DNA of 64,000 bases from Nitrospirae bacterium MYbinv3 (GTDB lineage: Bacteria > Nitrospirota > Thermodesulfovibrionia > Thermodesulfovibrionales > Magnetobacteriaceae), in contig PEAB01000001.1 of NCBI GenBank assembly GCA_002753395.1, positions 1 to 64,000 on the forward strand, given 5' to 3'. This document shows, in pieces, positions 2,743-57,192 of this stretch (position 1 is the stretch's first letter; each line of letters begins with the position of its first letter). The position numbers and the translations under genes were made by a program. The notes beneath the pieces were generated by a model, which did not search any database, had not been told where the DNA came from, and worked only from the letters and a program-made list of their open reading frames with translations.

Positions 2743-3651
2743 TTATTGTACGTCAATCGTAATAAAGACCTTGTGTTTTTCTAATATCCTTTTGAATTCT
2801 GAACTCTTTCTTAGATTTTTCAGCTCAGTGTCTTTACGCAAGAGATTGTAGTCTGTGAATCCATTCTCCAATGCCTTATCCAGGCTTTCAAGTGCCAGGT
2901 CTGTCGTGTTCTCATCCAATGAATACAGACACGTAAGGTTATAGAATACACTATAGCTATTCGGTAAGAGTCTGGCGGCCGTTTTTAGATCATCTAGAGC
3001 CTTGTTCCGTTTCTTTAGCAGCATATAAGCCGTTCCTCTCTGTTCGTATGCCTTGCCTGTTGTTTGATTGTCATTTGAGTTAATCTCTATGGCCTTTGTA
3101 TACTCATTGATTGCGTTATCAACATACTGCACAAATGCAGCCTTATTGCCTTTATTAACATTTACAAGTGCAATCCAGTGGAAGCCTTCTTCAAGGTGTT
3201 TGATTGCTTCTTGTTTTTTCATTTCGTCTCTGCTATCATTAGCTGGCGGTAACGGTGTCGGAGGGCCGCTAGGCGGGGTAGGAGGGGGTGATGGTTTGCA
3301 TTTCTCTTTTCTTACCTCATCGATGAGTTTTTGTCTATTACTGTCAGATATCTTGTAGCTTTTTGCTATCTTATCTCCTTCAGTGCAGCTTGTATCTCCG
3401 CCTGCGCAGCAATCAATTGTCTCACAGCATTTTTTTAAGGCCTCTTTATACTTTAGTTTAGGTCCATTAGCCATCTTAGACGTCATATAAACTAATAGCC
3501 CAATTAATACTAATGCTGCTACAGCTATTCCAACTATTAACAAAGTCCGCTTATTGTTACCTTTAGGTCTATCGATTCCACATCCTTGACACTTTGTACG
3601 GCTGTCAGGATTAACTGCATTACAACCATTACATGTCCAATTACTGCTCAT
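2743..3651 (-). CDS. Zinc-ribbon (RanBP2-type) / single-TM / TPR protein
   Basis: 302 aa; N-terminal WTCNGCNAVNPDSRTKCQGCG, TM segment LLIVGIAVAALVLIGLLVYM, proline-rich linker, TPR-like C-terminus. Confidence 0.7.
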   Translation of the reverse strand: MSSNWTCNGCNAVNPDSRTKCQGCGIDRPKGNNKRTLLIVGIAVAALVLIGLLVYMTSKMANGPKLKYKEALKKCCETIDCCAGGDTSCTEGDKIAKSYKISDSNRQKLIDEVRKEKCKPSPPPTPPSGPPTPLPPANDSRDEMKKQEAIKHLEEGFHWIALVNVNKGNKAAFVQYVDNAINEYTKAIEINSNDNQTTGKAYEQRGTAYMLLKKRNKALDDLKTAARLLPNSYSVFYNLTCLYSLDENTTDLALESLDKALENGFTDYNLLRKDTELKNLRKSSEFKRILEKHKVFITIDVQ

Positions 3652-6600: not shown

Positions 6601-6955
6601 TGCCAAAAGGTCTTATCCCGCCAGCACCCTCAGGGATAGAGCTTACGTTTAGATTCAGTTTTGGATCAAGCCATCCATTGGTCTTTCTTCTTATTGATTC
6701 AGCGTCGGCTTTAGCTATTCCCCCTGAGAGTTCCACCCTCTCAGCCGCGCTGAAGGTCAGGTTGTTACCTAGATATTCGGTAACGGCGTTTGAACCAGCG
6801 TCGGGGACCAGATTAGTGTGCGTATCCACGTGTAGGAATCCGATGCTAGGCAATAGGTCTAATGAGTCAAACTCCTCAACGATCATCCTTCTTACGTTTA
6901 ATAGAACGCTCTTGCCAACTCCCCCTATTCCAACGATTACTGACTGTGAAAACAT
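3641..6955 (-). CDS. Large tubulin/FtsZ-like GTPase (Tubulin_2-like)
   Basis: ORF 3641..6967; start at MFSQSVIVGIGGVGKSVLLN (about 6955) likely; tubulin signature MGGTGSGSFIEL; ~1100 aa with long C-terminal extension. Confidence 0.8.
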   Translation of the reverse strand: MFSQSVIVGIGGVGKSVLLNVRRMIVEEFDSLDLLPSIGFLHVDTHTNLVPDAGSNAVTEYLGNNLTFSAAERVELSGGIAKADAESIRRKTNGWLDPKLNLNVSSIPEGAGGIRPFGRLAFTYNVIPFRESLSGKIRKVMQLENITTTSQTLKQPTDNNLYIYIVCSFMGGTGSGSFIELCYNTRKVLKSENVEAISKVIGVFIIGGDNPTKRANCYSALKELQHYTMPNTTFNAEYPDPNAMKIINDKTSPVDVCYIVTQNAGDYQLIRGELEEVAAFNLFLEFSSDISNTKKGLRVDKMSQPGFINLEPQTNKPRSFLSFGLSSLSFPVFKIEEMMAYEMASATLQRWLFMDAITPVDSDILNQIDRKNLFQVLLNPEKKNIINEVNFGIEKKKAETITQKDANKIGNISMHFDEYKRDLQFSADPRLWGALTRAVQMTGTHQLLGTVNKLKEVTLKTVEDQYKGHLMANAFLNGIASYIDKEVTNLQKMHKSFQDEMTSMQNKFSASVSVLRETIGKDKFAVLHWINKVYGCIKGYAEAALYAEAYRVIIDMLSGKGLLLDDGSTLPSVRDELETLRRSISRYKESISSLSDRFSIKKQDIEGVVLAHKSFNDLMLNRTSLYEVIRSIVADPSVYAVPIMNDLIYHFAKKDNSGKTISEIRILNIVDLQQEGFINALLNKCKERCSGIRRFSIASILQRSPSNGIANILYSYVRRSKPMITIADPDVGEGLLHEWLGTSNPEGDTNIQALVKTIYSIKNYAQGGNLSHMSRLSDMYRIIFASEYLAFPLHKINLLGEYRQSYLAVNPSSTDVSIDFPDIFPDNWSDVIKRQAESYVLLGRIFDFLIQRTDAESGYDHIYLTYHDERSRQKIYTKLSRNWTDVEQHLITIQAGKDIDNLTASETPLEILTRLVDKIAASLKTRKDREALWSRLEGYLDKLKDSLDDREANPEFNRQLVIIEDYRRKFNLEPPESPHEIIRLDLHGDADKPDDTAVSSFRNDLTLLISRGIRDKDALINRGINRHRLSIDDAERLVLEALSTTGNGGKKELYRQYKEAFKSCYDLFGEVIEDDRIFLKDKQKKLGLTDDEVLSIEQEVKNEQ

Positions 6956-6956
6956 C

Positions 6957-7289
6957 TTACACCTCACTTGGTCTGGTCAATACCAGGTAGACCATGTCAA
7001 AGATTAATGCAAATACCAGGATAACCAGCGCTATTATGGTGCTGTAGAAACCGAGGATGTCTAATGATGCAATATCCCAGGCCAGAATAAAAGAGGCGCT
7101 CAATACCAGTGCCCCGTATTTGGCATTATCTATACGAGAGTTTATCGCATGATATATAATCCGCTTAAGGCCAAAATAGAGTATACCAAAGAACACACTG
7201 AAGGCTATGGCGATAAGGATCTCCTTTGTGGTAAGCTCTAGCGGCGGGGAGACCTCAACAAAGGTCTCCCATAAAAAAATCCTAAACAT
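6957..7289 (-). CDS. Small multi-TM membrane protein in the tubulin-caspase operon
   Basis: 110 aa with 3 hydrophobic segments; located immediately upstream of the tubulin-like gene on the same strand. Confidence 0.6.
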   Translation of the reverse strand: MFRIFLWETFVEVSPPLELTTKEILIAIAFSVFFGILYFGLKRIIYHAINSRIDNAKYGALVLSASFILAWDIASLDILGFYSTIIALVILVFALIFDMVYLVLTRPSEV

Positions 7290-7301: not shown

Positions 7302-8642
7302 TTATTTTGATTTTGCTAACTTTATGTTCCAGTCCTTTGTATCAGGTACTACCTGCGGATGTTGGTGTTCGTTTCTTTCAGCCCATACCCCATCAGTAAC
7401 GCGTGGTTTAGCATAACTAAAGGCATTAGCTATTTCGCCTTTAGTTTGTTTCAAGCCATCGAGTAAGAAGTAAGTGAAGAAACCGTTTTTAAGTCTTTTT
7501 GACTCAAATGATCTTTCGTTATTTCCACTTGCGCTTATCAAAACCTTCCCCCATCCATCAGATGAAAAGCTGCTTGATTCCTCCAATACTATATCCTTCG
7601 AGCCTATCATTTTTTTTGCCTGGTTTTCGCTTATACCATAGGTTTCATCTTCAACGCCCAGGGATTTTGCTCCTTCAGGATTAAGGCCTTTTATGTTCTT
7701 GTAAGCGCCGCTGCTATAACAAGTATCAAGTATAGCAACAACCCTTTTAGCCCTTATTCCTTGGAAAAAACCACTAAGCTCTGTTGCGGATATAGATGTA
7801 GACCACATTTTGTCTCCTGGTTTTTCAAATACTGTATCGTGAGTTACAATTGGTACATAGCCTTCTTTATCTGGCTTTGTACCATGACTACTTATATATA
7901 AGACCACAAGGTCGTCATCTTGGGCCTTGCTTATTATCTCATCCATGGCATTTTTTATATTAGCCCTTGTAGCTTTTTCACCTATTATGAGGGCGACATT
8001 ATTCTTGGTGAATCCTCCCTTGGCTGAATCAATAAGATATTTATACAGGTCACTTGCATCCTTTTCGGCAAATTCTAATTGTGGCGCTACTCTTTCGTTC
8101 TGAAATCTCCCTATGCCGACTACGAGGGCGTATCTGTTTTTGATCGGGCCCGGAGGACCGGCGCTCTTCTTTACGGCTGGGCTTTGGGCCGCTTTTAGCA
8201 TCATCTCTGAGAGCTTCTTAGACCAGCCTGGTACAACAACATTTTCAGGATCTACGGGTGAAACCCACTTTACGCCTACCGTTGACTGAGCTAGAGAAAA
8301 GGCCTTGTCAACCTCTTCCTCGTTTAGATATGAGCCTTTAAGCTGTATCCGTCCTAACCTGTCTATCTCCACAAAGCCATCCCGCACATTATACTTCTTA
8401 AACAGGTCATTAATCGTGGCTACGTGATGCGATGTAATTGGCGAGGAAGGATTCGTGGCTAATTGCGCAGCAGGACTTGATGCGGTAGCTGATGGTTGCG
8501 AAGGTGTTTCTGGCTGACCATAAGTCATACCTTGCCCTCCAAGCATCCCTAAACCTGTAACAGTTTGTAATGGTATACATTGCATTAGCAATAATGTGAT
8601 TGAAATAAGGCAGACAATAAGCAGTAAATAACTCTTTTTCAT
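7302..8642 (-). CDS. Caspase-like (peptidase C14) lipoprotein
   Basis: 446 aa; lipobox-like LLLMQC; YALVVGIGRFQ, VVLYISSHGTKPD (catalytic His context) and VVAILDTCYSSGAY (catalytic Cys context). Confidence 0.85.
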   Translation of the reverse strand: MKKSYLLLIVCLISITLLLMQCIPLQTVTGLGMLGGQGMTYGQPETPSQPSATASSPAAQLATNPSSPITSHHVATINDLFKKYNVRDGFVEIDRLGRIQLKGSYLNEEEVDKAFSLAQSTVGVKWVSPVDPENVVVPGWSKKLSEMMLKAAQSPAVKKSAGPPGPIKNRYALVVGIGRFQNERVAPQLEFAEKDASDLYKYLIDSAKGGFTKNNVALIIGEKATRANIKNAMDEIISKAQDDDLVVLYISSHGTKPDKEGYVPIVTHDTVFEKPGDKMWSTSISATELSGFFQGIRAKRVVAILDTCYSSGAYKNIKGLNPEGAKSLGVEDETYGISENQAKKMIGSKDIVLEESSSFSSDGWGKVLISASGNNERSFESKRLKNGFFTYFLLDGLKQTKGEIANAFSYAKPRVTDGVWAERNEHQHPQVVPDTKDWNIKLAKSK

Positions 8643-43577: not shown

Positions 43578-45101
43578 ATGGAGGTTACGTTGAAGAGAAA
43601 GGTTAGAATAGAAAGGCAGTGTCTTTTGTTTGTTCTGTTGGCGCTGACTTTTGTTGCGGCCTGCAGCGAATCAAATGTCCCTCCTCCTGAAACAGTAAAT
43701 TTAGCGGTAAAACAACCGGCATCGCAAAATATTCACGCAAACGTTTTTCTTGATGTATCCGGTACGATGGAGGGCTTTGTCTATAGAACAGCTTTGCAGT
43801 CAAACTATAAGGATGCGGTAAGACAGGTAGAGTCAGTGTTTCTTGCGAAATGGCCTTCTCCAACAATAAGCTTCTATAAGTTCGCTAGAAGTACTAGACC
43901 AATAGATAGTATCTTTAATGTAACCTCGCCGGATTTTTATAGGGAAAGTAGGTTTTCTGACGCTACCAACATTCACACGGTTTTCGAAGAAGAAGGAGTT
44001 TGTAAAAAAGATACCCTGTCAATAATAATCACAGACCTGGTACCTGATCCTCCTAATACTATTAGGTTAGTTAAAAAGATTAGTGATAAATGTATCTCTA
44101 AAGACTATTCCATAGGGATTGGAGGGTTTACGAGCAGATATCGAGGAAGAATAAGAGATAATGAAAATGATAGCTTAAATATTATCAAAAGTTCAGATAG
44201 GCCATTCTATATAATTGCATTAGGCAGCCATGCCAATATCGAGGAGTTTTTTAACCAAATACTCAAGCAATTTAATAGTTTTGCCTCGAAAGAAACAATG
44301 ACGATCTTCTCACCAGCTATCGTCGAACAGCTTTTGACCTTCTCAGAAAGTTCCGTTGCTTACAGGTCGCCAAATGTCATTGAGACTAAAAGTATCATTA
44401 GATATGGCAGCACGGGCACAACGACACAGAACAAAAAGGTAAAGGATAAAATTATACAGAAAGAAAAGTCGGAGGACAAAAAACCACCGAGTGTAACGCT
44501 GCAGAGTGAAGTAATCAAACAGTTTGTAGTACGTCCTTCTAAAGATACTACAAATACAACCAGTGACACTGACATCATCACCAAACTAAACTACGCTCCA
44601 GTTCAATACAGGGTACCCCTTAAGGAAGACTCTTATATCAAAAAAGATTGGCCGTCTTGCAAAACCGAACTGTTAAAACGATATAAAAACGAACTAATAG
44701 TAAGTAATACGACAGTTGAAAAATATAATGAAATAAAAGGGTTTGAAGAAGTTAAGGGCATTACAAATTCATTTTATGTTAATGCGATGTTATGTGTAGA
44801 TAAGGATCCCAGTAAAGGTGGAAATACCCCTGAGAGGACAAAGCTGTTTCTGCATGTTGGTCTAAATACTAAGGTGTTGAATAATGGCTGTATATACCGT
44901 CTGACAGTAGACATTAAACCTGCTGACAGTGCATTTGATAAAACTGATAAATGGTGGAAGACATGGAATCTTGACAATAATGGATCTATAGGCTCAAAAA
45001 CGCCAAACCTTAATCTGTTTATTAATACCATCGAAGGCGTCACTATTCAACACAAACGACCGTATTTGGGTAGTGTTTATTTCTACTTTAAAAAGGATTA
45101 A
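43578..45101 (+). CDS. vWA-like lipoprotein
   Basis: 507 aa; lipobox FVAAC; NIHANVFLDVSGTMEGFVYR (MIDAS-like DxSGT), SIIITDLVPD. Confidence 0.7.
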   Translation: MEVTLKRKVRIERQCLLFVLLALTFVAACSESNVPPPETVNLAVKQPASQNIHANVFLDVSGTMEGFVYRTALQSNYKDAVRQVESVFLAKWPSPTISFYKFARSTRPIDSIFNVTSPDFYRESRFSDATNIHTVFEEEGVCKKDTLSIIITDLVPDPPNTIRLVKKISDKCISKDYSIGIGGFTSRYRGRIRDNENDSLNIIKSSDRPFYIIALGSHANIEEFFNQILKQFNSFASKETMTIFSPAIVEQLLTFSESSVAYRSPNVIETKSIIRYGSTGTTTQNKKVKDKIIQKEKSEDKKPPSVTLQSEVIKQFVVRPSKDTTNTTSDTDIITKLNYAPVQYRVPLKEDSYIKKDWPSCKTELLKRYKNELIVSNTTVEKYNEIKGFEEVKGITNSFYVNAMLCVDKDPSKGGNTPERTKLFLHVGLNTKVLNNGCIYRLTVDIKPADSAFDKTDKWWKTWNLDNNGSIGSKTPNLNLFINTIEGVTIQHKRPYLGSVYFYFKKD

Positions 45102-45119
45102 TAATAAGGAGGACATGAC

Positions 45120-45605
45120 GTGGCAAAACTAAAACAGATTATGTCAATATCAGGTATCTTGCTTATTGGCGGGTTGTTCTGCTTGTTATCCAACGTAGAG
45201 CTGGAATACATAGTAAACAGGCGTATCACAATCTTTGAAAGCTATGATCTGGAAACGTGGGAAAAGCAATTTATAACCGGAGCTTATATTGTGTGCGCTT
45301 TTGCAGCGTTCATCAGCGTACTGTGGTATGGATTGACGCAGTGGCATTTTAAGGTTGTTGATTGGAAAAGCGTTGGTAAACGACCTCTATGGCTATTTTT
45401 GTTTTTCATTATACCTATAGCAGCTTTTCTATTTGGGCTTGTTTATTTGAAGGACTATGTTGAGCAAGGGATTGGATGGCCAGCTGGGTTCTATGCAATT
45501 AACAGTATGCTTTGCTATTATCTTTCTACGCTATTTTGTTCGCCAGTGGCGTTTAAGTACACCCCAATTGGTGCAACGTTAGTACGATACTGGCTGCACT
45601 ATTAG
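45120..45605 (+). CDS. Multi-TM membrane protein
   Basis: 161 aa; at least 4 hydrophobic segments; between vWA-like and tubulin-like genes. Confidence 0.6.
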   Translation: MAKLKQIMSISGILLIGGLFCLLSNVELEYIVNRRITIFESYDLETWEKQFITGAYIVCAFAAFISVLWYGLTQWHFKVVDWKSVGKRPLWLFLFFIIPIAAFLFGLVYLKDYVEQGIGWPAGFYAINSMLCYYLSTLFCSPVAFKYTPIGATLVRYWLHY

Positions 45606-45637
45606 ATAATTAGATAATTAGAACAGGGAGGAAGAAG

Positions 45638-47185
45638 ATGAAACATTACGCTATAGGGATAGGGGGAACGGGTGCAAAATGTATGGAGGCGTTTGTGCAT
45701 CTGTGTGCTGCTGGCATAATTGATGGAGAGATTTTTAGCCTCTTTATAGACCCTGACAGTGCAAACTATCTCCTTGAGAGGGCAACAAAGGCCTTTAATA
45801 CCTACATTAAATGCAAGGGCACCAACGTAAGCGGCATTGACTTCATGCGTGCTAGGATAAATGCACCAGACCCAATGGTATGGCCGCTCTTTGATACGAA
45901 TGTACAGCCTGACCTCAGCAGCTACTTTCAATACACCAACATGCACAACATCAGAACGGAGGCGGCACACCTGTTTGACACCCTATATACCAAAGCAGAA
46001 AAGGAAACCACACTTGAACGGGGCTTTAGGGGGCATCCTGCAATAGGTGCTGCAATAATGGCAAGCATCGCTCAGACCAAAAACGAACCGTGGGGCACCT
46101 TCTGCGACAGGTTGGTTCAGGACTTAGGCAGCGGCGAAGATATAAAGATCTTTATCTTTGGCTCTGTCTTTGGCGGTACAGGCGCTTCAGGGCTGCCTAC
46201 CATCGCAAGGGTCATAAACAACCTTATAACGGATGGAGGTAGTAAAAAGAGCGCTAAGGGCACTGTAAAGATTGGCTGCGCTATGCTGCTACCTTACTTC
46301 TCTTTTGTGAGCAGTGATAACGACAATGAGTTAAAGGCTAAATCAGAAAATTTTATAGTCAATACTCAAGCCGCCCTCAAGTATTATCATCAGATGAAGA
46401 GAATGGACATCTACGATGCAGTCTATTTGCTAGGGACAGAGACACAAAGTCCCGTATCTGTGGCAAGTACGGGAGGCCGTGAGCAGAAAAACGATCCGCA
46501 TTTTATCGAATTATACGCAGCCCTCGCGGCCTTTGATTTCTTCAAAGCTACGAATTACAACCGTTCAGCCATGTATAGAGTGTTAGGGCGGGAGAAAAAT
46601 AACAGGGTTGACTGGGAGGACCTTCCTGACAACGAAACCCGCTCTATGATAAAAAGCAAGATTCTTAATCTAACACGATTTGCATTTGCCTACTTGAACT
46701 TCTATTACCCTATGTTAGGGGATATCGATAAAAGGGGGGCTTTCTATAAGGCACCGTGGTATGTTGATATATTTGAGAGATGTGGAGAAAAACTGCTTTC
46801 TGATAAAACAAAGGCATCACTGCTTGACTTAAAGGGTTATTCTGAACAGTATTTGTCGTGGTTAGCCAATATACACAAGTCCGCAAGGGATGTGAATGTA
46901 AACCTTATAAATTGCAATGCCTTTTCCTATACGGTAGATGAAAACGGGCGGACGAAGACCGAGCTTTTGGCTGATTTTAGGCGCGAGCATTTTGATGATC
47001 TGTTGTTGCCGGCAACCAACACGCCAACAGACGGTTTAAATGGCCTCTGGCATCGTATATGCGAGACGGCATTAGAAAAAGATAATAGCCTCAATGCTCT
47101 GGGTAGATTTATAAAGGTGCTTTATAATTCTTGTTCAGTAATAAAAAACAACAAACCGCTGCAAGAAAGAGCAAGCACTCGATAG
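45638..47185 (+). CDS. Tubulin/FtsZ-like GTPase (Tubulin_2-like)
   Basis: 515 aa; MKHYAIGIGGTGAKCMEAFVHL, IFIFGSVFGGTGASGLPTIARV. Confidence 0.82.
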   Translation: MKHYAIGIGGTGAKCMEAFVHLCAAGIIDGEIFSLFIDPDSANYLLERATKAFNTYIKCKGTNVSGIDFMRARINAPDPMVWPLFDTNVQPDLSSYFQYTNMHNIRTEAAHLFDTLYTKAEKETTLERGFRGHPAIGAAIMASIAQTKNEPWGTFCDRLVQDLGSGEDIKIFIFGSVFGGTGASGLPTIARVINNLITDGGSKKSAKGTVKIGCAMLLPYFSFVSSDNDNELKAKSENFIVNTQAALKYYHQMKRMDIYDAVYLLGTETQSPVSVASTGGREQKNDPHFIELYAALAAFDFFKATNYNRSAMYRVLGREKNNRVDWEDLPDNETRSMIKSKILNLTRFAFAYLNFYYPMLGDIDKRGAFYKAPWYVDIFERCGEKLLSDKTKASLLDLKGYSEQYLSWLANIHKSARDVNVNLINCNAFSYTVDENGRTKTELLADFRREHFDDLLLPATNTPTDGLNGLWHRICETALEKDNSLNALGRFIKVLYNSCSVIKNNKPLQERASTR

Positions 47186-47206
47186 TAAACTTAGGAGGAT
47201 GATAGA

Positions 47207-50200
47207 ATGGCACATATACTAGCGCCCAAAATGAAAGATGGTGGAGACAATAACACAACCCCAATTACCGAGCGAGGGGTATGGGAGACGAGGGATTATT
47301 CTGAGCTTCACAAACTGAGTGAGAGCCTAAAGATAAGTGATGAGATCGCTAGTTATGTAGAGTTAACCGGTATCCCTGACTTATGGGCTCGTCTGCGTTT
47401 CTTTGATATGGCCTTGTACGACGTGCGTCACCCATTTCACCTCGATGTGATTGGGCAATGGCGCGGGCTTTTGGCTCTTATTGCACTGAACGAAATAAAA
47501 TTAAATAACGGTCTAAAGGCCGTCTCTGTAGACTTGAAAAATACAGCAGGCAAACAGAATTTTGAATTCATTGATGTCAGCATGGCCTTGCTTCCTTCTG
47601 AGGTACTATACCCCAATACGGATTGGTCAGAGCTGTACATATTTCTGTTTAGGAATAAACCGATAGGTATTACGTCGCCTACAACCCTTGTCTGTACGGC
47701 AGCCGATTATATGAATCGCCTAAACAATGTCTCATGGTATAACGGGGTGGTGCTGAAAGACCCAATCCCTTGTCTAAATAGCAAAGAAAAATCTCTTCTG
47801 GCCGGTTGGCTCTCGATGCTTAAGGCCAGCCTGCTTAAAACAGCAGTAGTAGATGACAGACTCATAACTCTGATTGACAACCCGGCTCTCAATCAAAACA
47901 AACCTCGCGGTTTTATACAGGATCTTACCTGTGAGTTTGTGAAGATTGGGTTCAGTAATACGAGTCTTAATATGACAAAGGGGATATACAGGTTTATCTC
48001 AAGGCCTATAGGACCCAAAGGTAAACCTGAATCACACGTGCTCTTAATATCAGACAGGACACCAGAGGCAACGCCCAAGGTTTTGTTTATAGAGGATGAT
48101 ATCCATAGACAATGGGGTTTAGAGCGTCATGACGTCACTCTTTACGGGCACATAACCCTTGACGGGATGCCTTTTGGCGGGGTACAAGAAAACACAAAGA
48201 TGATAGGGGACACCCCGCTGCCAGAGGAGTTCGTAATAAAGAAAAAAGACAGCTTCTTTATGGATAAGATCTATCTCATCGGGGTGCCAGACGCCTTTCC
48301 GGGCGCCTTACCGATTAAGGGAAGCAGTGACCTTAGTCTTCAAGATACACCTCTTACGCCGTTGATACCGTTAAAGGAGGAGATCCTTAAATATATAAGC
48401 CCCTTAGAATTGAGCAAAAGGATACGTTTCCAAAGAGACGGTGTGGATATAAGCGTTACCCTGCGTCTGCCCTTAGCGGGGCCTGATGGAAGAGGCAAAG
48501 ATTATAAGGTTACAAAAACCTTCTTAAAGGCAGAAGGTCAAGTAGATACTAGTATCAATGGCGTGCCTGTGCTGCAGTTGTGGCCAAACTTTATAGTAAA
48601 AGAAAAGGAGAGGGCATGGAACCTCTATTTTTCTTTTTACAGCATGGGCGATATCACAACCTTCCACGCTACGCCATATCATTATAAAGGTCATATTCTA
48701 AAACAAAAGGCGTCGAAGGCAAACGGTCGGATTAAGAGTGAAAACGTACAGATGGATATGTATCCAGAGGCCATGTTATGCAGTTTTGATCCGCTTGGTA
48801 CAGGGAGTGAGATAACGGTGGGCATTGTGCTTCTTAAAGAGCCTCAACCGATAGATGTGCAGCCTTATAAGGTTTGGAGGATCGGGATTGATTTTGGAAC
48901 AACCGGAACGAGCGTTTACTATCGTGAAGGCAAAAGTGAACCCGAGAGGCTGTCCTTTTCGAAGCAGTTACAGGTGAGCATAACTGGGTCCACTGAAGAG
49001 AAGCGCCCTGATTTATATCGGAGTTTTATCCCTGAGGCCTTGATAACCCCACCATTTTTGAGCGTATTTCATATCCTGAATAAAACGGCACAACACCCTC
49101 TATCCCCACTGATTGACGGCAATATTGCTTACGTATTGCAGGGTGGGGGCGAATACGATGCAGGCAAAGATGACATCAAAACGGATCTAAAATGGAGCGA
49201 TAAGATAGATGACAGGGTTTATACTAATGCCTTTTTAAATCAAATATTCCTGCAGTGTTCAGCGGAGGCAGTTTTCAACGGTGTTAGCACTGTAACGTGG
49301 AAATACTCTTACCCTGTTAATTTCTCTATGGATGAAGCGTTTATGGCTACATGGAAAGGTATTCTTCAGACTTATTCTGGTTTGATCTGTTTAAAGACGG
49401 ATGATAAGTATCCAGGCTTTATAGGAGAGAGTGAGAGTGTGGCATCGGGGATGTACTTCGGAGAACATCCCCGATATGGGGCAACTTCTAAGGCAAATTT
49501 TGTTAAAGGGGTGATCTGTTTTGATATAGGCGGTGGTACTACTGACATTTCTATCTGGCATAAGGATAATAAGCTGCTTTATCAAACGTCAGTGCTTTTA
49601 GCCGGAAGAAATCTGTTTCTCGATATCTTATATTTAAGGACAGATATAATAGATCTCTTTGCACAAGACAGAAAACAAGTGGATTTGATTAAAGAGAAAA
49701 CCGATAGAAGGATCTTTTATTCTCAAGCAGATGCCTTGATTATGAAAGAAGGCGAAGCATGGCTTAACGAAAAACTTAATGCTATTTCAGGAAGTGAAAA
49801 GTTTAAGGAGTTAAAGAGGCTCATCGCTATTGGTATAAGCGGGCTATTTTACTACGTCGGCTTAATCTTTAAAGGTTTAATGACAGAGAACACAAGGCTT
49901 CCTGGCATTTACGCAGGCGGCAATGGTTCAAAGCTATTTCATTGGATTGCAGGCTCTCAATACAGTAAAGATAGTGTTATCAACAAACTTTTAAGAGGGG
50001 CACTCATCGGTTTGCCTTACAATGAAGCAGATAGTCTTAAGGCAGCGGAAAACCCTAATGATTTTGTAGTAAACCTAAGTATGGATCCCAAGGCAGAGGC
50101 TGCATATGGTTTGGCCATCAGTGATGCCGCTTATCTCAGAGATGATAAGGCAGCTCAGCGTAAAGAGGTATTCTCGGGCGCTAAATACTACTATGAATCG

Positions 50201-50497
50201 GTTATGCAGGGCTGCAATACCATGCTCTATGAGGACATGTTTATTAAAGGCATTGAGATAGACAGAGAGTTGCTAAATCTCAAGGAATTTGTTGAGATTT
50301 TCAACAGTTATGCAGAACTAAGTAATCTGCAGCAGATAAATGTTGACGAGGGTATCTATGGCAGGATAGCAGACAATGTGTCTCAAAAACTCACGAACCA
50401 TAGAGCTATGAAAAAGGGAGAAATAAGACTTGAGCCTTTATTTATATTAGAGTTAAAAGAACTTCTGAGGTTAGAAACAGAGGCATGGACAAACTGA
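47207..50497 (+). CDS. Large actin/Hsp70-fold ATPase
   Basis: 1096 aa; VWRIGIDFGTTGTSVYYREG (phosphate 1), GVICFDIGGGTTDISIW (phosphate 2), LPGIYAGGNGSKLFHW (adenosine-like). Confidence 0.8.
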   Translation: MAHILAPKMKDGGDNNTTPITERGVWETRDYSELHKLSESLKISDEIASYVELTGIPDLWARLRFFDMALYDVRHPFHLDVIGQWRGLLALIALNEIKLNNGLKAVSVDLKNTAGKQNFEFIDVSMALLPSEVLYPNTDWSELYIFLFRNKPIGITSPTTLVCTAADYMNRLNNVSWYNGVVLKDPIPCLNSKEKSLLAGWLSMLKASLLKTAVVDDRLITLIDNPALNQNKPRGFIQDLTCEFVKIGFSNTSLNMTKGIYRFISRPIGPKGKPESHVLLISDRTPEATPKVLFIEDDIHRQWGLERHDVTLYGHITLDGMPFGGVQENTKMIGDTPLPEEFVIKKKDSFFMDKIYLIGVPDAFPGALPIKGSSDLSLQDTPLTPLIPLKEEILKYISPLELSKRIRFQRDGVDISVTLRLPLAGPDGRGKDYKVTKTFLKAEGQVDTSINGVPVLQLWPNFIVKEKERAWNLYFSFYSMGDITTFHATPYHYKGHILKQKASKANGRIKSENVQMDMYPEAMLCSFDPLGTGSEITVGIVLLKEPQPIDVQPYKVWRIGIDFGTTGTSVYYREGKSEPERLSFSKQLQVSITGSTEEKRPDLYRSFIPEALITPPFLSVFHILNKTAQHPLSPLIDGNIAYVLQGGGEYDAGKDDIKTDLKWSDKIDDRVYTNAFLNQIFLQCSAEAVFNGVSTVTWKYSYPVNFSMDEAFMATWKGILQTYSGLICLKTDDKYPGFIGESESVASGMYFGEHPRYGATSKANFVKGVICFDIGGGTTDISIWHKDNKLLYQTSVLLAGRNLFLDILYLRTDIIDLFAQDRKQVDLIKEKTDRRIFYSQADALIMKEGEAWLNEKLNAISGSEKFKELKRLIAIGISGLFYYVGLIFKGLMTENTRLPGIYAGGNGSKLFHWIAGSQYSKDSVINKLLRGALIGLPYNEADSLKAAENPNDFVVNLSMDPKAEAAYGLAISDAAYLRDDKAAQRKEVFSGAKYYYESVMQGCNTMLYEDMFIKGIEIDRELLNLKEFVEIFNSYAELSNLQQINVDEGIYGRIADNVSQKLTNHRAMKKGEIRLEPLFILELKELLRLETEAWTN

Positions 50498-50518
50498 TGC
50501 CAAGCAGCATTAGCTTAA

Positions 50519-50688
50519 TATACTAAACTAAATGGAGTTTGCAAAAAGATTTTGACCTTGATATCCAATAACATGAAAATGTCATTCCTGCGAAAGCAGG
50601 AATCTATGCGTCTTGACGGGATTACGGAGTGGATTCCCGCTTACGCGGGAATGACAAGATTTTTGCAAACCTGACTTATCTTGGTATA
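50519..50688. repeat. 170-bp MITE-like element, copy 2
   Basis: Near-identical to 29499..29668 with the same TATAC...GTATA termini. Confidence 0.78.
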
Positions 50689-50727
50689 GAATAAAGTAAT
50701 GTCAGATGTATGTAAACATTGAGATTG

Positions 50728-50819
50728 TCTGAACTAGGATTACACGGATGCAAGGATTTACAGGAAAAAGCGGCTGCGTAATCCTGACAATCCTTAAATC
50801 CGTTAAATCATGGTTCAGA
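50728..50819. repeat. 92-bp inverted-repeat element, copy 2
   Basis: TCTGAACTAGGATTACACGGAT ... AAATCCGTTAAATCATGGTTCAGA. Confidence 0.78.
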
Positions 50820-50837
50820 TTAAAAGGATGGTAATTT

Positions 50838-51992
50838 ATGAAGAACAAGTTATACTTAAAACAAATAACTCTATTTTTATCTATTTCAATCTTTACAGTA
50901 TTACTTGTGAACCTATGTAGTGGGTTGAAAGATTTTGCCTATGCTGAGGATCCTAAAGATGCGGTTAAAGCTGAGGTAAAGCCAAAAAAAGGCGAAAAGA
51001 AAGAATCTACAAAAAATGATACGCATAAGCAACCATCACCTTCGCCAAAGCCACAAGGCAATGCAACTACTTTGCCTCCAAAAGTAAATGTTAGCGATGA
51101 ACTCTACAGTATAAAAAGTACATTGTCCAATATTGAATTGAGATTGGAAGCGATAAAAGAGCTTACAATACAACTTAAAGATACTCATCAAACAACGAAT
51201 CGTTATGATAAAGAAAACCCATCTTCTTCTACCGACGATTTTTTTCTGTGGACTATTATAAACATTGTTGCTTTAGTTGCTTTTTTTGTTTCCTTGTTAC
51301 TTATTCTTGATCATAAGTTAGATAAGTTGTTGATAGATATAGTCGATAGACATAAGCAGGAATTAAGTAAATTACAGCATAATTATAATAGTGAAAAAGG
51401 TAAACCTACTAGTAGAAAAGATGATTTTGACTTTGAACAAGAGATTAAAAATCTGAATGTTCAATTGACAACAATAGATTCAAAGATTCAAACGATTCAT
51501 AACCTTTTAGCCAGGTTTGTTAAAAGTAATAGTTCTAATGAAAATGAACCAAGCAACCAATGTCAAATAGGCTATGATAAGCCGAAGAATGAATCGGTCT
51601 CAGCGCGGATTGAAAGATTCATCAATGACTATAATAATAATAATAGACCTGATTCTTTTAAAGATAGCTATACTCCCCAAAAATTAGGAATAAAAAATAC
51701 TGAAGAAAGGTACAAAGATCCAAACATACAGCCCAGAATTTCTGAAGCAGGAAACGGTTGGTATTGGGGTGTTGATCTCAATGATGACGGAAAACTGTAC
51801 GTTGTCCCCATACATGGGGCTCAGATAAGTGAACAGGGATATAACACCCACGCATTAGATTCCTTTTATGATAGCAATTTTACACCAAACGCATATTTTC
51901 GTAATATCAAACTTATCAAACCCGCACGTTTAAAAAGTTCGGCAGGAAACGAGTGGGTGATAGATGAAAAAGGTAGACTGGAACTAAGCTAA
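50838..51992 (+). CDS. Membrane-anchored coiled-coil protein
   Basis: 384 aa; N-terminal signal/TM, second TM FFLWTIINIVALVAFFVSLLLIL, coiled coil, globular C-terminus GWYWGVDLNDDGKLYVVP. Confidence 0.65.
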   Translation: MKNKLYLKQITLFLSISIFTVLLVNLCSGLKDFAYAEDPKDAVKAEVKPKKGEKKESTKNDTHKQPSPSPKPQGNATTLPPKVNVSDELYSIKSTLSNIELRLEAIKELTIQLKDTHQTTNRYDKENPSSSTDDFFLWTIINIVALVAFFVSLLLILDHKLDKLLIDIVDRHKQELSKLQHNYNSEKGKPTSRKDDFDFEQEIKNLNVQLTTIDSKIQTIHNLLARFVKSNSSNENEPSNQCQIGYDKPKNESVSARIERFINDYNNNNRPDSFKDSYTPQKLGIKNTEERYKDPNIQPRISEAGNGWYWGVDLNDDGKLYVVPIHGAQISEQGYNTHALDSFYDSNFTPNAYFRNIKLIKPARLKSSAGNEWVIDEKGRLELS

Positions 51993-51993
51993 C

Positions 51994-53844
51994 TTGACCA
52001 ATATAGTCACATATATCAGGAGTTTAATGGGCGTAACCAACTTTTTAGAAACGCTTGTATCATATCTGAGGCCTTCAAATACAATAGCCATGTCTGTGGT
52101 GATGTTTCTTATCATATTATTTGTTATATGGCTGCTTGCCTTGTCCTTTCAAGCAATCACGATAATAAGGAAACGGAGGTTAATCAATAAACTGTCTTAC
52201 GTCGATGCCCTCGCAAGTTTCCGTGAGGGATATACATACGTTAAAAAGCAAAATAAACATGAAAAAGCATTTGAACTGTTCCTAAGCGATAATAAGGTAT
52301 CGAGAAACTCCATTATCGCCAAACACATACACACTATATTTGAGGCCGGTATTAAAGGCTCCCAACTAGAGATTGCCTCCCTCCTAAACCACACCAACCA
52401 CCAACTGTTTGCCGCCAATAACCTTTTGAAAAACGTCCTGAGCGTCTTTATCATCATCGGCCTCCTGGGTACCCTGTTTGGTCTGGCCGACAGCCTTGCC
52501 CACCTCTCGCTTATAACCGACGTAAATGACACTAAACAGTTTAAGAATGACATCTCGTTTGCCTTACGAGACCTCCTGGTTTCCCTGAAAAGCGCCTTTG
52601 CACCAAGCATATGGGGTGTCATGTTTACCATCGCGGGTGTCTTTGCCTATGGACTGTACATCAACTTTTCCTGCAACCCCCTAAAGACCTCCCTCGAATA
52701 TAAGACATTAAACGTCTGGCTTCCTGAACTCTACCCCACCACCACCCAGGAACTCTATAAGACTCTACAACAGAGCGAACAACACATGCGAGAAAACTTT
52801 AAGGCCGCTAAAGAAGTCGCAAACCTGGCACAATCCATTAAAGATGAGACAGGCGATTTTAAACAAAACCTCAAGAGCGCAAACTCACTCTTAGTGCCCC
52901 TTAGTATAACTACAGAACAATTGAATACCACCTCACAGTTATTAGACAAGGACTTCTGCAATAGATTAATGCTCTTTACGAGTGAATTTGCCAAGAGCGT
53001 AAACTCCCTGACGTCTTTTCAGGCCGAGTTACGAACCTTATACGACCAGATGATCAAAGGCTCTGAAACCCTAGAACAGAATCTGACACGCTCTCTGTCT
53101 GTCCAACAAGCAGAGATCCATGATATTATATTCAGCATTAAAAAATATGAGAAGTCATTCCTGGAATTACAAGAAAAACTTGACACGAACGTCTTAGCTT
53201 TTATCAACGAGGCAAAAGAGGCCACCACAAGCGTAAGCAAAAGCAACAGAGATATCGTCGAACAGAACCTTAAAAACCTCACAGCCAGTCTGAATGAGTT
53301 GAATTATATCCTACAAACAGGACTAATCAGCATATTGGAACGATTTAATAGATTCGATACCCCTGTCAAAGGCGCGGCTGATAAGATTGAAAGTAACTTT
53401 GAAAACTACAACAAGCTCATTCAGGGTATGCTCTCTGAACTGCAAAAGGAGATCATTCAGCAGGGTGCAAGATACAGCCAACATCTCACAGAAGGCAACG
53501 AACTAAAAGATCGGATCGAAAAACTTTTCACACAAGTAGATATAAACAGCGCCAAACAGATAACGTCCATTGATGGTTTTGTTAAAAACGTCGAGTCGCT
53601 TAATGCTACGGCAGCCAAACTGCTCCAAGGTACAGAGAATATGCTCACAGCGCTTCAACACAGCAGCGACGCCAACTCCCTGTCCAACAACATCCCAAAA
53701 CTGACAGCAGCCATCAATGACCTGATTCAACTTATAGCAACGGGTCTCTCCATAGATGTTGTAAGACCCTCAGTTTCTATGCCTTCAGATGGCAGTGGAA
53801 GCAAAATAAATAAGATAATGGATAAGCTTAGACGGAAATTATGA
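51994..53844 (+). CDS. MotA/TolQ/ExbB-like (ZorA-like) channel protein with long coiled-coil tail
   Basis: 616 aa; SVFIIIGLLGTLFGLADSLAHLS and SAFAPSIWGVMFTIAGVFAYGLYI followed by long helical region; start codon is TTG. Confidence 0.68.
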   Translation: MTNIVTYIRSLMGVTNFLETLVSYLRPSNTIAMSVVMFLIILFVIWLLALSFQAITIIRKRRLINKLSYVDALASFREGYTYVKKQNKHEKAFELFLSDNKVSRNSIIAKHIHTIFEAGIKGSQLEIASLLNHTNHQLFAANNLLKNVLSVFIIIGLLGTLFGLADSLAHLSLITDVNDTKQFKNDISFALRDLLVSLKSAFAPSIWGVMFTIAGVFAYGLYINFSCNPLKTSLEYKTLNVWLPELYPTTTQELYKTLQQSEQHMRENFKAAKEVANLAQSIKDETGDFKQNLKSANSLLVPLSITTEQLNTTSQLLDKDFCNRLMLFTSEFAKSVNSLTSFQAELRTLYDQMIKGSETLEQNLTRSLSVQQAEIHDIIFSIKKYEKSFLELQEKLDTNVLAFINEAKEATTSVSKSNRDIVEQNLKNLTASLNELNYILQTGLISILERFNRFDTPVKGAADKIESNFENYNKLIQGMLSELQKEIIQQGARYSQHLTEGNELKDRIEKLFTQVDINSAKQITSIDGFVKNVESLNATAAKLLQGTENMLTALQHSSDANSLSNNIPKLTAAINDLIQLIATGLSIDVVRPSVSMPSDGSGSKINKIMDKLRRKL

Positions 53845-53855
53845 CAGAGGGTGAG

Positions 53856-53985
53856 GGGTGCATAAGAATTTCATGGGGGACAATAAAAATTAATGGGGTC
53901 AAGGGAACTGGTCCCCTTGTGGGTGGGTCTGAGGGAGGGGGTTGCGAACCCCTGCAACATTAGGCAAAGCCCCCCCTCTAGACTA
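53856..53985. repeat. Family A MITE-like repeat, right end truncated or degenerate
   Basis: GGGTGCATAAGAATTTCATGGGGGACAATAAAAATTAATGGGG, near-identical to the 13084 copy at its left end. Confidence 0.7.
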
Positions 53986-53996
53986 GAAGAATGTAT

Positions 53997-55856
53997 TTAT
54001 GGTTGTAACTCCACAAATGCCCATGCTGTTTCTTTATTAGCATCCTTTATGGTGATGATTACGCGTACCCCAGCGGTAACAGTCTTGAGGGTTGTAACCG
54101 TAAGCGTACTGGCTGCATCATCAAAGGAGGCGCTAACGAGGTCTGGTCTGCTAACGTTAAACGTGTAAGGGGCCTCGCCGCCATCAACCTCAAATGTAGC
54201 AGTTGTACCTACCGCAGGGGTTGTGAGGGTCTGTTTTCCCGGTGTCACGTTCACCTTTGATGTGGTAAACACAAACCAATCGGGATCATCAACCGAGCCT
54301 AAAGAACCTCCCTTAACGATAATCGCTCCATCCATAAGCCACATGTAGAGCTGCCCCATTGTCTGGTTCTGCCATAGGATGTCAAGTTTGCCATCACCGT
54401 TATAGTCTCCAACCCTGACTATATTCCAATCGAAATCATCTACGATAGCAACAGACTTGGCGTCTTTTATGTTTGCACCATCCATAAACCAGAGAGCCAC
54501 TTGACCGGTTTTCTGATTTCTGTACAGGATATCGCCCCTGCCGTCACCGTCAAAGTCGCCTACCCGAACAATTCGCCACTGAGGGTCTTTAAGATCAGTC
54601 ACTTTAGCGAATTTCTTTATCTTTTCACCGTCCATAAGCCACATGGCAAGTGCTCCCATCCCCTCGTGTCTGAAGAGGATATCATCTCTACCATCGCCAT
54701 CGAAATCAGCTACACCGGCTACATCCCACGACCTTGGCACCTTTACGTCAATATACTTAGCGTCTACGACGTCTATACCATTCATAAACCATATGACCAT
54801 ATCGCCCTTTTCTTTGTGTCTCCATAGGAGATCGGTCATACCATCACCGTTGAAGTCTCCAACTGCCTTTAAGTACCAATTCTTCTTTTCTATCTTATGT
54901 TTCACATGACCGTGGCTGGCTATATTTAATCCATCCATCAACCAGATATACAACGATCCGTCACGTTTGTTTCTCCAGACAATATCGGCCTTGCCATCCC
55001 CGTCAAAGTCCCCAACACCATCAATTACCCATTCAAGAGGAACCCTGCCAGGTGAACCGGATTTTGTTACATTGTCGCTATTCATCAACCATATAGCAAC
55101 GTCCCTTGTTTTCTGGTTATGCCAAAGGATATCGCTCATGCCGTCGCCGTCAAAGTCGTTTGTTACCTTACGGCCAACGCCGCCTAGGCCTATGAAAGTA
55201 GCAACAACATTCCTGCTTGCAGTCATTTTTACCGTACAGATACCGTTTGTTGCATTATCGCTTGTTACGTTATCGCTTGCAGGGTCGCAGCCTGACCATC
55301 CACTAAACGTAGAACCTGTATCCGCAGCAGCCGTAAGCGTTACGACTGTGTCCTTTAAATACGGAGCGGAACACGTCAAACCACAACTGATGCCTGCTGG
55401 CGAACTTGTAACCGTGCCCTTGCCGCTTCCAGACTTACGTACAGTCAGCGTAATGCCGGTGGTTGCCCCCTTGCTAAACTTAGCCGTTACAGTCTTTGCC
55501 TCAGACATTTTTACCTTACATTTGTTGGCGTCATCTCCACCGTTTGAATTTGGATCATCGGTGCCTGTTTCACAACCACTCCAGCCGCCAAACGTAGAGC
55601 CTTGGTCTGCTTTGGCTGCAAGCATCACGATAGTGCCCTGAGGATACTGCGCTGAACACGCACTGCCACAACTTATACCCTGAGGGGTGCTCATTACCAT
55701 ACCACTGCCGTCGCCACTCTTATTCACTGTCAGCTTAATACCTGCATCTTCTGAATACGCTGGTTCAACTGACAGCGCTATAAAAGAAAGCAACACGCTT
55801 AACACTGCAATAGCATACACCGTACGACTATTCAACGACCTACTAAAGTAACTCAT
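53997..55856 (-). CDS. Secreted VCBS/FG-GAP repeat protein with bacterial (InlB_B_2-like) repeats
   Basis: Signal peptide; GTVTSSPAGISCGLTCSAPYLKDTVVTLTAAADTGSTFSGWSGC repeats; multiple DFDGDGKADIVWRN-type repeats. Confidence 0.85.
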   Translation of the reverse strand: MSYFSRSLNSRTVYAIAVLSVLLSFIALSVEPAYSEDAGIKLTVNKSGDGSGMVMSTPQGISCGSACSAQYPQGTIVMLAAKADQGSTFGGWSGCETGTDDPNSNGGDDANKCKVKMSEAKTVTAKFSKGATTGITLTVRKSGSGKGTVTSSPAGISCGLTCSAPYLKDTVVTLTAAADTGSTFSGWSGCDPASDNVTSDNATNGICTVKMTASRNVVATFIGLGGVGRKVTNDFDGDGMSDILWHNQKTRDVAIWLMNSDNVTKSGSPGRVPLEWVIDGVGDFDGDGKADIVWRNKRDGSLYIWLMDGLNIASHGHVKHKIEKKNWYLKAVGDFNGDGMTDLLWRHKEKGDMVIWFMNGIDVVDAKYIDVKVPRSWDVAGVADFDGDGRDDILFRHEGMGALAMWLMDGEKIKKFAKVTDLKDPQWRIVRVGDFDGDGRGDILYRNQKTGQVALWFMDGANIKDAKSVAIVDDFDWNIVRVGDYNGDGKLDILWQNQTMGQLYMWLMDGAIIVKGGSLGSVDDPDWFVFTTSKVNVTPGKQTLTTPAVGTTATFEVDGGEAPYTFNVSRPDLVSASFDDAASTLTVTTLKTVTAGVRVIITIKDANKETAWAFVELQP

Positions 55857-56562
55857 AACATTTCCTCCTTGATAGTTAATACTGTTTTTATACACATCAC
55901 TCTGATAACCATTCCATCCGCTACAACCATAGTACAGACATAGTTTGTCATCCTCCTTCTCTATAGATCAAAGTCAACTTATAGTCTATGTCTCTATTAT
56001 TAGTATAATTAAATATATAAATCTGTCGTCCTGGTGACAGTTCTTAAAATATTTTCGTATCTTGTATCTTTTTTGGTAGTCCTGCGCAAGTAGTGGTGAC
56101 AGTAAACTTAACACCCTCCCCTAACCCCTCCCATCAAGGGAGGGGGAATGAATATCACTACCTCTGCATGACTACCTCTTTTTTATATTTCATGGAAAGA
56201 AGGGAGGGCTTTGCCTCTGCCGCAGGGGTTCGCAACCCCCTCCCTCAGACCCACCCACAAGGGGAGGGGTGAGGCACCCCGACCACAAAGAAGCCCCCTT
56301 GACCCCGTAAAATGCTTAATCCTAATTTATGGATATATTTATGTTCTTCTACTTACCATGTTTTTTAAAGAGGAGACAGATTCTCCTTCTATATTTTAAC
56401 GGACTATGAAGTGTTTAACTCTGTTTATATTAGCACTAAATTCCCGTTACGTCAAGGGGCGCTGCCTTTGCAATAATATAACATACAGCACTATCTTAAA
56501 TATTGTAGATACAACTATTAAAATAATACTAATTCTAACCTCATGTGTTTTATAATAACACT

Positions 56563-57192
56563 ATGAATTCGGTGATAGACGAGAGAGTACGTAATAAGAT
56601 CATCAAGATCTTGGAGCAGCGTGGTATAAAGCAGCGAGAGCTTGCTGAGATGATTGGTGTTATGCCGCAGAATCTTAATGCTTACATGACGGGCAAGCGG
56701 GGGTTCGGCAAGAAGAACATCGCACGGATAGCCAAGGCCTTAAACATACCGGAGGAGTCTTTTTATAGCGACCCAAGTGTAAACCGTTCGCGGATCAAGA
56801 AGGCAAGAAGGATACCCCTTTTATCTTGGACCAATGCAGGGGTCTGGCACGAATCAGTTGACATCTTTCGGGAAGGCTACGCTGAGGATTGGCTGGCATA
56901 TGATGCTACGGATCCATATGCCTTCGCTGTGCGTGTAGCGGACAACTCTATGGAACCAGAGTTTAGACCTGGCGACTTGACGATCGTATCGCCCTCGCTA
57001 ACACCAGCTACCGGAGACTTCGTCGTGGCCAGAAGCGGCAATAACGTAGTCCTGCGGAGGTTAAAGCACCTCGAACATGCCATTTTACTTAAACCTATTA
57101 ACCACGATTACGACGACATGCACATAGCCAATAAGGACAAAAAACTCTTACGCCTTATTGGCAAGGTAATTGCCAAGATTGTTAAATACTGA
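56563..57192 (+). CDS. XRE-HTH / S24 LexA-like transcriptional repressor
   Basis: ORF 56545..57192; RGIKQRELAEMIGVMPQNLNAYMTGKR HTH; VADNSMEPEFRPGDLTIVSPSL, GDFVVARSGNNVVLRRL. Confidence 0.88.
   Translation: MNSVIDERVRNKIIKILEQRGIKQRELAEMIGVMPQNLNAYMTGKRGFGKKNIARIAKALNIPEESFYSDPSVNRSRIKKARRIPLLSWTNAGVWHESVDIFREGYAEDWLAYDATDPYAFAVRVADNSMEPEFRPGDLTIVSPSLTPATGDFVVARSGNNVVLRRLKHLEHAILLKPINHDYDDMHIANKDKKLLRLIGKVIAKIVKY

What the first reader, a model, noticed from the sequence alone, without database searches (positions are those of the whole stretch)
43578..53844. Candidate cytoskeletal-envelope machine: vWA lipoprotein, tubulin-like, actin/Hsp70-like, coiled-coil TM and MotA/ZorA-like channel
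Seen: six co-directional genes. They encode a lipoprotein with DVSGT MIDAS-like motif, a multi-TM protein, a 515-aa tubulin-like protein (GIGGTGAK, GGTGASG), a 1096-aa protein with both actin/Hsp70 phosphate motifs (IDFGTTGTS, DIGGGTTDIS), a two-TM coiled-coil protein, and a 616-aa protein with MotA/ExbB-like TM segments and a long helical tail. Knowledge: ZorA of the Zorya defence system is a MotA-like stator with a long cytoplasmic tail. Tubulin- and actin-family NTPases rarely share a compact operon. Inference: an envelope-anchored, proton-channel-driven machine with two different cytoskeletal NTPases, possibly an undescribed conflict or envelope system.
Basis: partly seen in the sequence, partly recalled or inferred. 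Interest (0 to 1): 0.88.

Follow-up and report, generated by a model that had tools for sequence, protein, structure and literature searches.

The report
Envelope operon pairing tubulin, actin, motor
A compact set of bacterial genes, found in many distantly related bacteria and on mobile DNA, combines a tubulin-like protein, an actin-like protein and (in one large branch) an ion-driven motor like that of the Zorya anti-phage system, which points to an undescribed membrane-anchored machine whose job has not yet been tested.

Summary
In detail: six co-directional genes with tight spacing. The 1096-aa protein (ActL) has an actin/Hsp70 ATPase fold. The 515-aa protein (TubL) belongs to Pfam Tubulin_2. 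The 616-aa protein (MotL) is a MotA/ExbB-type channel with a long tail. The lipoprotein carries a conserved MIDAS, though no profile or fold confirms vWA.
The same order, vWA–TM–TubL–ActL–TMcc–MotL–MotB, recurs in Nitrospirota, Acidobacteria, KSB1 and Poribacteria. Cyanobacteria carry the core without the motor. TubL and ActL trees are strongly congruent. In 79 Poribacteria-phylum genomes TubL and MotB co-occur (10 of 11 each, p=8e-11).
The window copy lacks the MotB gene that should follow MotL; a paralogous MotL2–MotB pair lies on another contig of the same genome. MotB keeps the membrane aspartate and an OmpA domain. It resembles ZorB, but ZorC/D/E were not seen, so this is Zorya-like in parts, not Zorya.
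The operon is accessory, AT-rich, and found on plasmids, a phage-like contig and a mobilisable element; single relatives contain conflict modules.
Best reading: an envelope-anchored, NTPase- and ion-driven machine of the predicted FtsZl1/vWA kind, probably for conflict or envelope stress. Function is untested.

The parts
43578..45101 (+). Lipoprotein with vWA-type MIDAS (DVSGT at residues 59-63, TD at 152-153), 507 aa, lipobox Cys29
   Evidence: family alignment A8 with MIDAS residues conserved in 29-30 of 31; no Pfam/PDB profile hit
45120..45605 (+). Small multi-TM protein (TM161), 161 aa
   Evidence: 3 hydrophobic segments, 4 in the L014 relative; relatives adjacent to TubL in 70 of 82 loci
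45638..47185 (+). TubL, tubulin/FtsZ-like GTPase of Pfam Tubulin_2, 515 aa; T1 GIGGTGAK, T4 FGGTGAS
   Evidence: Pfam PF13809 4.3e-8; T4 motif in 30/30 relatives; predicted fold matches tubulin/FtsZ
47207..50497 (+). ActL, 1096 aa: about 550-aa N-terminal region of unknown identity plus actin/Hsp70-type ATPase domain (IDFGTTGTS, DIGGGTTDIS)
   Evidence: profile A5 vs PDB: MreB 3.4e-8; Pfam MreB_Mbl in 23/37 and FtsA in 19/37 relatives at E<=0.01; AlphaFold + Foldseek
50838..51992 (+). TMcc384: signal/anchor, TM at residues 139-157, coiled coil, C-terminal signature domain
   Evidence: C-terminal domain conserved in all lineages aligned
51994..53844 (+). MotL, 616 aa, TTG start: MotA/ExbB-type membrane core with conserved GLLGTLFGLADSL and K.AFAPSIWG motifs, long helical tail
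   Evidence: Pfam MotA_ExbB 2.9e-5; weak PADLOC ZorA 2e-4, family members up to 3e-18; invariant core residues
53845..53996 (+). Place where MotB follows MotL in relatives; no MotB remnant found here
   Evidence: tblastn of MotB against 53701-56600 gave nothing significant

Best explanation
The operon encodes an accessory, envelope-anchored machine. Shown by sequence: a lipoprotein with a MIDAS metal site; a small multi-TM protein; a tubulin-type GTPase (TubL); a large protein with an actin/Hsp70-type ATPase (ActL); a membrane adaptor with a signature C-terminal domain (TMcc); and a MotA/ZorA-type channel subunit (MotL). MotL's partner MotB has a single TM with the motor aspartate and an OmpA/peptidoglycan-binding domain; it is encoded in the same operon in other phyla and elsewhere in this genome. 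Inferred: the lipoprotein and MotB monitor the periplasm and cell wall. On a disturbance MotB grips peptidoglycan, ions flow through MotL-MotB, and the long MotL tail transmits movement or a conformational signal to a TubL/ActL assembly at the inner membrane via TMcc. The two NTPases act as nucleotide-timed switches or short filaments that set the threshold and build a local scaffold. Because the operon is patchy, mobile and sometimes linked with known conflict modules, the likeliest purpose is response to invasion or envelope damage rather than housekeeping.
For: Conserved order in several phyla. ActL adjacent to TubL in 60 of 80 loci, median gap 22 bp; TubL/ActL tree distances r=0.95, 0 of 2000 permutations. 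Actin fold of ActL; tubulin fold of TubL. MotB with invariant FNFWPSF[AS]DxML and OmpA domain; MotB profile hits MotB 7e-11, ZorB-like 8vvn 1.7e-9 and 8qyd 8e-7, and PADLOC ZorB models 2.7e-19. TubL and MotB co-occur in 10 of 11 Poribacteria-phylum genomes each, p=8e-11; 9 of the 10 lie about 7 kb apart on one contig by the coordinates. Accessory: TubL in 6 of 177 order genomes and 11 of 79 Poribacteria; absent beside the syntenic right flank in G001 and G002; operon GC 40.9% versus 45.4%. Mobile: cyanobacterial plasmids, contig with phage terminase, element with relaxase. Conflict modules: iSTAND, MoxR-type AAA and CoxE-type vWA between TubL and ActL in L105, AAA_35 and WD40 proteins in L107, TIR-like in L034.
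Against: No experiment. Each conflict-module association is one locus. The window copy lacks MotB, so its own motor may be incomplete or served in trans. Cyanobacteria and Selenomonadaceae lack MotL/MotB, so the motor is not needed for the core. None of the window operon proteins other than MotL matches a PADLOC defence model. Envelope morphology or motility would also fit the anatomy. Filament formation by either NTPase is unproven, and TubL's match to tubulin is confined to the GTPase part.
Confidence: 0.5

Rival explanations
1. A membrane-remodelling or envelope-trafficking machine (the hypothesis of Makarova and Koonin 2010 for FtsZl1/vWA operons): the NTPases shape or move membrane and the motor couples this to the ion gradient, as a housekeeping or adaptive function and not as immunity.
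For: Same TubL family and vWA partner as in PMC2875224; most partners carry TM segments or a lipobox; the OmpA domain of MotB fits their OmpA-like partners.
Against: Patchy, mobile distribution and occasional conflict modules inside the operon are unusual for housekeeping.
Confidence: 0.3
2. A gliding or cargo-transport motor like the Myxococcus Agl-Glt machine, where MotAB-like AglRQS works with the actin MreB along the envelope.
For: MotAB-like motor beside an actin-fold protein; AglRQS is a known motor of this superfamily (PMC3858216 found; AglRS listed among non-flagellar MotAB relatives in PMC12505986). The MreB link is background knowledge.
Against: The core operon occurs without the motor in cyanobacteria and Selenomonadaceae. 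No outer-membrane adhesin or Glt-like gene is a constant member. MotL and MotB resemble ZorA and ZorB in PADLOC scans.
Confidence: 0.1
3. Two unrelated units that happen to be neighbours: a TubL-ActL-vWA system and a stand-alone MotL-MotB motor.
For: MotL2-MotB stand alone on contig C72 of this genome and in a same-genus genome without a detected TubL; cyanobacteria have the core without it.
Against: Operonic linkage in four phyla and 10-of-11 co-occurrence in Poribacteria; exactly one such MotB per genome in the ten motor-bearing genomes searched, at the TubL locus in nine (the tenth, G441, is split between contigs).
Confidence: 0.1

Closest known systems
FtsZl1/vWA predicted membrane-remodelling operons (Makarova and Koonin 2010, PMC2875224; Pfam Tubulin_2)
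   Same: TubL belongs to Tubulin_2; vWA-type partner; OmpA-domain and TM partners; patchy distribution across bacterial phyla
   Different: The main text names no actin-like or MotA-like partner (supplements not readable here). TubL is short (about 500 aa) without the long coiled coil of typical FtsZl1. ActL, TM161, TMcc and MotL/MotB are constant here or in one branch
Zorya anti-phage system (ZorA-ZorB; PMC11890865)
   Same: MotA-type subunit with long cytoplasmic tail, MotB-type subunit with TM aspartate and peptidoglycan-binding domain; PADLOC ZorA/ZorB models match the family
   Different: No ZorC, ZorD or ZorE match among the window genes or the neighbours scanned; NCBIfam ZorB1 equivalog cut-off (400 bits) missed by far (26-50 bits); partners are TubL, ActL, vWA
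DO-GTPase/GAP1 and MoxR-vWA conflict systems (Kaur et al. 2020, PMC7159879)
   Same: NTPase-plus-vWA logic; one GAP1-N2 theme pairs tubulin with vWA, another carries HSP70; an iSTAND-MoxR-vWA set lies inside the operon in L105
   Different: No DO-GTPase, GAP1 or GASH gene recognised; ActL is not HSP70 (no HSP70 Pfam match in 37 members); presence of MotA/MotB
Agl-Glt gliding machinery of Myxococcus (AglRQS with MreB)
   Same: MotAB-like motor together with an actin-fold protein at the envelope
   Different: No tubulin-like or vWA partner known to me; different gene set

Membership tests
FtsZl1/Tubulin_2-vWA operons | Tubulin_2 GTPase with T1 and T4 glycine loops | tested here: met
   PF13809 4.3e-8, cut-off passed; T4 in 30/30, T1 in 29/30 relatives
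FtsZl1/Tubulin_2-vWA operons | vWA-domain partner in the operon | tested here: inconclusive
   MIDAS residues conserved but no Pfam or PDB profile match; fold not predicted
FtsZl1/Tubulin_2-vWA operons | Long C-terminal coiled coil in the majority of FtsZl1 proteins | tested here: not met
   TubL is 515 aa and its model shows no helix longer than about 30 residues; typical FtsZl1 have an extended coiled coil. A 1108-aa homologue lies at 3641-6967
Zorya | ZorA: MotA-type core with long cytoplasmic tail | tested here: met
   PF01618; PADLOC ZorA matched by all 14 family members, best 3.4e-18, window member only 2.3e-4
Zorya | ZorB: TM Asp plus peptidoglycan-binding domain, beside ZorA | tested here: inconclusive
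   Present in relatives and on contig C72 of this genome, absent from the window operon; NCBIfam ZorB1 cut-off not reached
Zorya | ZorC/ZorD or ZorE effectors | tested here: not met
   No match in the window operon or in the neighbours scanned; the whole genome was not searched for them
Zorya | Anti-phage activity | not testable with these tools
   needs phage challenge
DO-GTPase/GAP1 conflict systems | TRAFAC DO-GTPase and GAP1 proteins | tested here: not met
   No Pfam match in any operon protein
Actin/Hsp70 (ASKHA) superfamily, ActL | Two phosphate motifs in an actin-type fold | tested here: met
Filament-forming actins and tubulins | Nucleotide-dependent polymerisation | not testable with these tools
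   needs biochemistry or imaging

The most novel reading that the evidence does not exclude
A motor-driven cytoskeletal immunity or stress machine: an ion-powered ZorAB-like motor anchored to peptidoglycan drives or triggers a joint actin-like plus tubulin-like assembly under a vWA lipoprotein sensor, forming a new class of envelope-sensing anti-invader system spread by plasmids, phage-like elements and mobilisable elements across bacterial phyla.
Probability: 0.35. Interest if true: 0.93.

Novelty: new variant of a known kind. Interest (0 to 1): 0.78.

Why it matters
Tubulin-family and actin-family NTPases are seldom encoded as one conserved unit; here they co-evolve (r=0.95) over many phyla. 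The link to a ZorAB-like motor suggests that Zorya-type motors are modules with more than one output, and gives the FtsZl1/vWA prediction of 2010 a concrete, testable parts list, including copies on plasmids of cultured cyanobacteria.

Tried and rejected
Single-protein PDB searches of MotL, TubL and ActL gave nothing useful; family profiles were needed. A single-sequence genome-contig scan found nothing; the alignment-based scan worked. The MotL membrane core profile found no motor in PDB, and full-length MotL hits are mostly coiled-coil noise, so ZorA kinship rests on PADLOC and Pfam. The TubL family profile found no convincing PDB match either, so the tubulin fold rests on Pfam and the predicted structure. 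I looked for a MotB remnant after MotL and found none. Phage records hold no L030-type TubL. Filing it as Zorya was rejected (no ZorC/D/E; NCBIfam cut-off failed). Filing it as a DO-GTPase system was rejected (no GTPase/GAP1). Coincidental neighbours were rejected on co-occurrence statistics.
Full report
WHAT IS THERE. The window is part of a 3.7 Mb draft genome. A close relative of the operon, from the same family, lies in a Nitrospirae MAG (G014 = L031), so the organism is very probably Nitrospirota. Six + strand genes run from 43578 to 53844 with gaps of 18, 32, 21, 340 and 1 bp. Pfam places the 515-aa protein (TubL) in Tubulin_2 and the 616-aa protein (MotL) in MotA_ExbB, both above cut-off; the other four have no significant family alone.

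THE 1096-AA PROTEIN. Built into a 37-member family, ActL hits MreB structures at 3.4e-8, through both phosphate motifs in the alignment shown. 23 of 37 members hit MreB_Mbl and 19 hit FtsA at E<=0.01. The predicted structure is confident (pLDDT 85) and Foldseek returns MreB, BeeR, ParM and Hsp70, best E 7.5e-9, probability 1.00. TM-scores are modest because the ATPase is about half of the protein; the N-terminal half (roughly 1-550) has no identified relative.

THE TUBULIN-LIKE PROTEIN. T4 FGGTG[AS] is in 30/30 relatives and T1 in 29/30. The model (pLDDT 83, pTM 0.89) matches only tubulins and FtsZ at E<1e-3, but with low TM-scores: the GTPase core is tubulin-like, the remainder is not.

THE LIPOPROTEIN. 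DVSGT, a following T/S and a TD pair are conserved in the manner of a MIDAS. No profile supports vWA, so this remains a motif-level claim.

CONSERVATION. A pattern scan of 85,462 species genomes found 484 TubL relatives; the best 80 were studied, which biases the sample towards near relatives. Order vWA-TM-TubL-ActL-TMcc-MotL-MotB recurs in Nitrospirota, Acidobacteria, KSB1 and Poribacteria; Aminicenantes contigs show it in part. Cyanobacteria have TM-TubL-ActL-TMcc repeats with the vWA gene often divergent, and no MotL/MotB; many Selenomonadaceae loci have TM and TubL without ActL. ActL adjoins TubL in 60/80 loci with room, TM in 70/82. TubL and ActL distances correlate at r=0.95 over 55 loci, 0/2000 permutations; shared species history contributes to this. 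TMcc proteins share a C-terminal signature domain in all lineages.

THE MOTOR. MotL has invariant core motifs (G-L-[LF]-G-T-L-F-G-L-x-D and K-x-A-x-A-P-S-I-x-G). In relatives it is followed by MotB with an invariant intramembrane Asp (WPSF[AS]D) and an OmpA domain. Its profile hits MotB and Zorya ZorB structures (that 8vvn and 8qyd are Zorya entries is my own knowledge) and PADLOC ZorB models (2.7e-19), but falls far below the NCBIfam ZorB1 cut-off. In Zorya, ion flow, peptidoglycan binding and the tail are all needed for defence (PMC11890865). The window operon has no MotB and no remnant of one. The genome does encode one, with a paralogous MotL2 (46% identical, sister branch, support 1.0) on contig C72. 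A same-genus genome has this orphan pair and no detected TubL. So here the motor may work in trans, or MotL may act without its usual partner; mis-binning of C72 is not excluded. In 79 genomes of the Poribacteria phylum TubL is in 11, the close MotB in 11, both in 10 (p=8e-11); the two exceptions lie near contig starts.

ACCESSORY AND MOBILE. 6 of 177 genomes of the order have TubL. The right flank (FG-GAP gene, XRE regulator, panD, ispG) is conserved in two same-genus genomes without the operon beside it. The operon is AT-rich (40.9 versus 45.4% GC). Relatives lie on cyanobacterial plasmids, where TubL is annotated at best as tubulin-like and the partners as hypothetical proteins, on a contig with a phage terminase and beside a relaxase. 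Within or beside single operons are an iSTAND, MoxR-type AAA and CoxE-vWA set (L105), AAA_35 and AAA_35-WD40 proteins (L107) and a TIR-like protein (L034).

HOW IT MAY WORK (inferred). The lipoprotein and MotB report on the periplasm and cell wall; ion flow through MotL-MotB moves or reshapes the MotL tail; TMcc links the membrane to a TubL/ActL assembly whose nucleotide state sets threshold and output. Conflict or envelope stress is favoured over housekeeping by mobility and module sharing; the evidence is associative.

LITERATURE. FtsZl1/vWA operons were predicted in 2010 as membrane remodelling (PMC2875224). Tubulin-vWA and HSP70 themes occur in GTPase-centred conflict systems (PMC7159879). 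I found no description of the tubulin-actin-motor combination in the open-access library searched; subscription papers and supplements were not available.

Noticed in passing
window 3641-6967 (-), with 2743-3651, 6957-7289, 7302-8642: A second, classical FtsZl1 locus in the same window: 1108-aa Tubulin_2 protein (2.2e-57) next to a zinc-ribbon/TPR-like protein, a small TM protein and a caspase-like (by eye) lipoprotein.
   Followed up: partly
L112 9811-12587 (contig C72 of this genome) and L117 5495-7782: Stand-alone MotL2-MotB pair conserved in the genus, outside any TubL operon.
   Followed up: yes
L016 145-3081 and L017 9790-14688: ActL-like proteins without TubL in another genus of the family: one followed by a split Hsp70-like gene (by eye), one 1632-aa form near a metallophosphoesterase-like gene.
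   Followed up: no
L032 4827-9959: A 1710-aa RHS-repeat protein sits between the TM gene and TubL of an Acidobacteria operon.
   Followed up: partly
L053 18323-20521: Cyanobacterial operons can carry a second, short ActL (732 aa) and several proteins with the TMcc signature domain, one with an N-terminal zinc-ribbon-like motif.
   Followed up: partly
L069, L070, L075, L085 and other Selenomonadaceae loci: TubL with its TM partner but no recognisable ActL downstream; what replaces it is unknown.
   Followed up: no
L049 11646-13619: A Gloeobacterales locus has a divergent MotB-like gene, with a MotA-like gene (by eye) beside it, on the opposite strand near the operon.
   Followed up: no
window 53997-55895 (-) and L122: FG-GAP/InlB-type repeat gene next to the operon; in a same-genus genome this spot holds several paralogous repeat proteins, so it may be a variable site.
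   Followed up: partly
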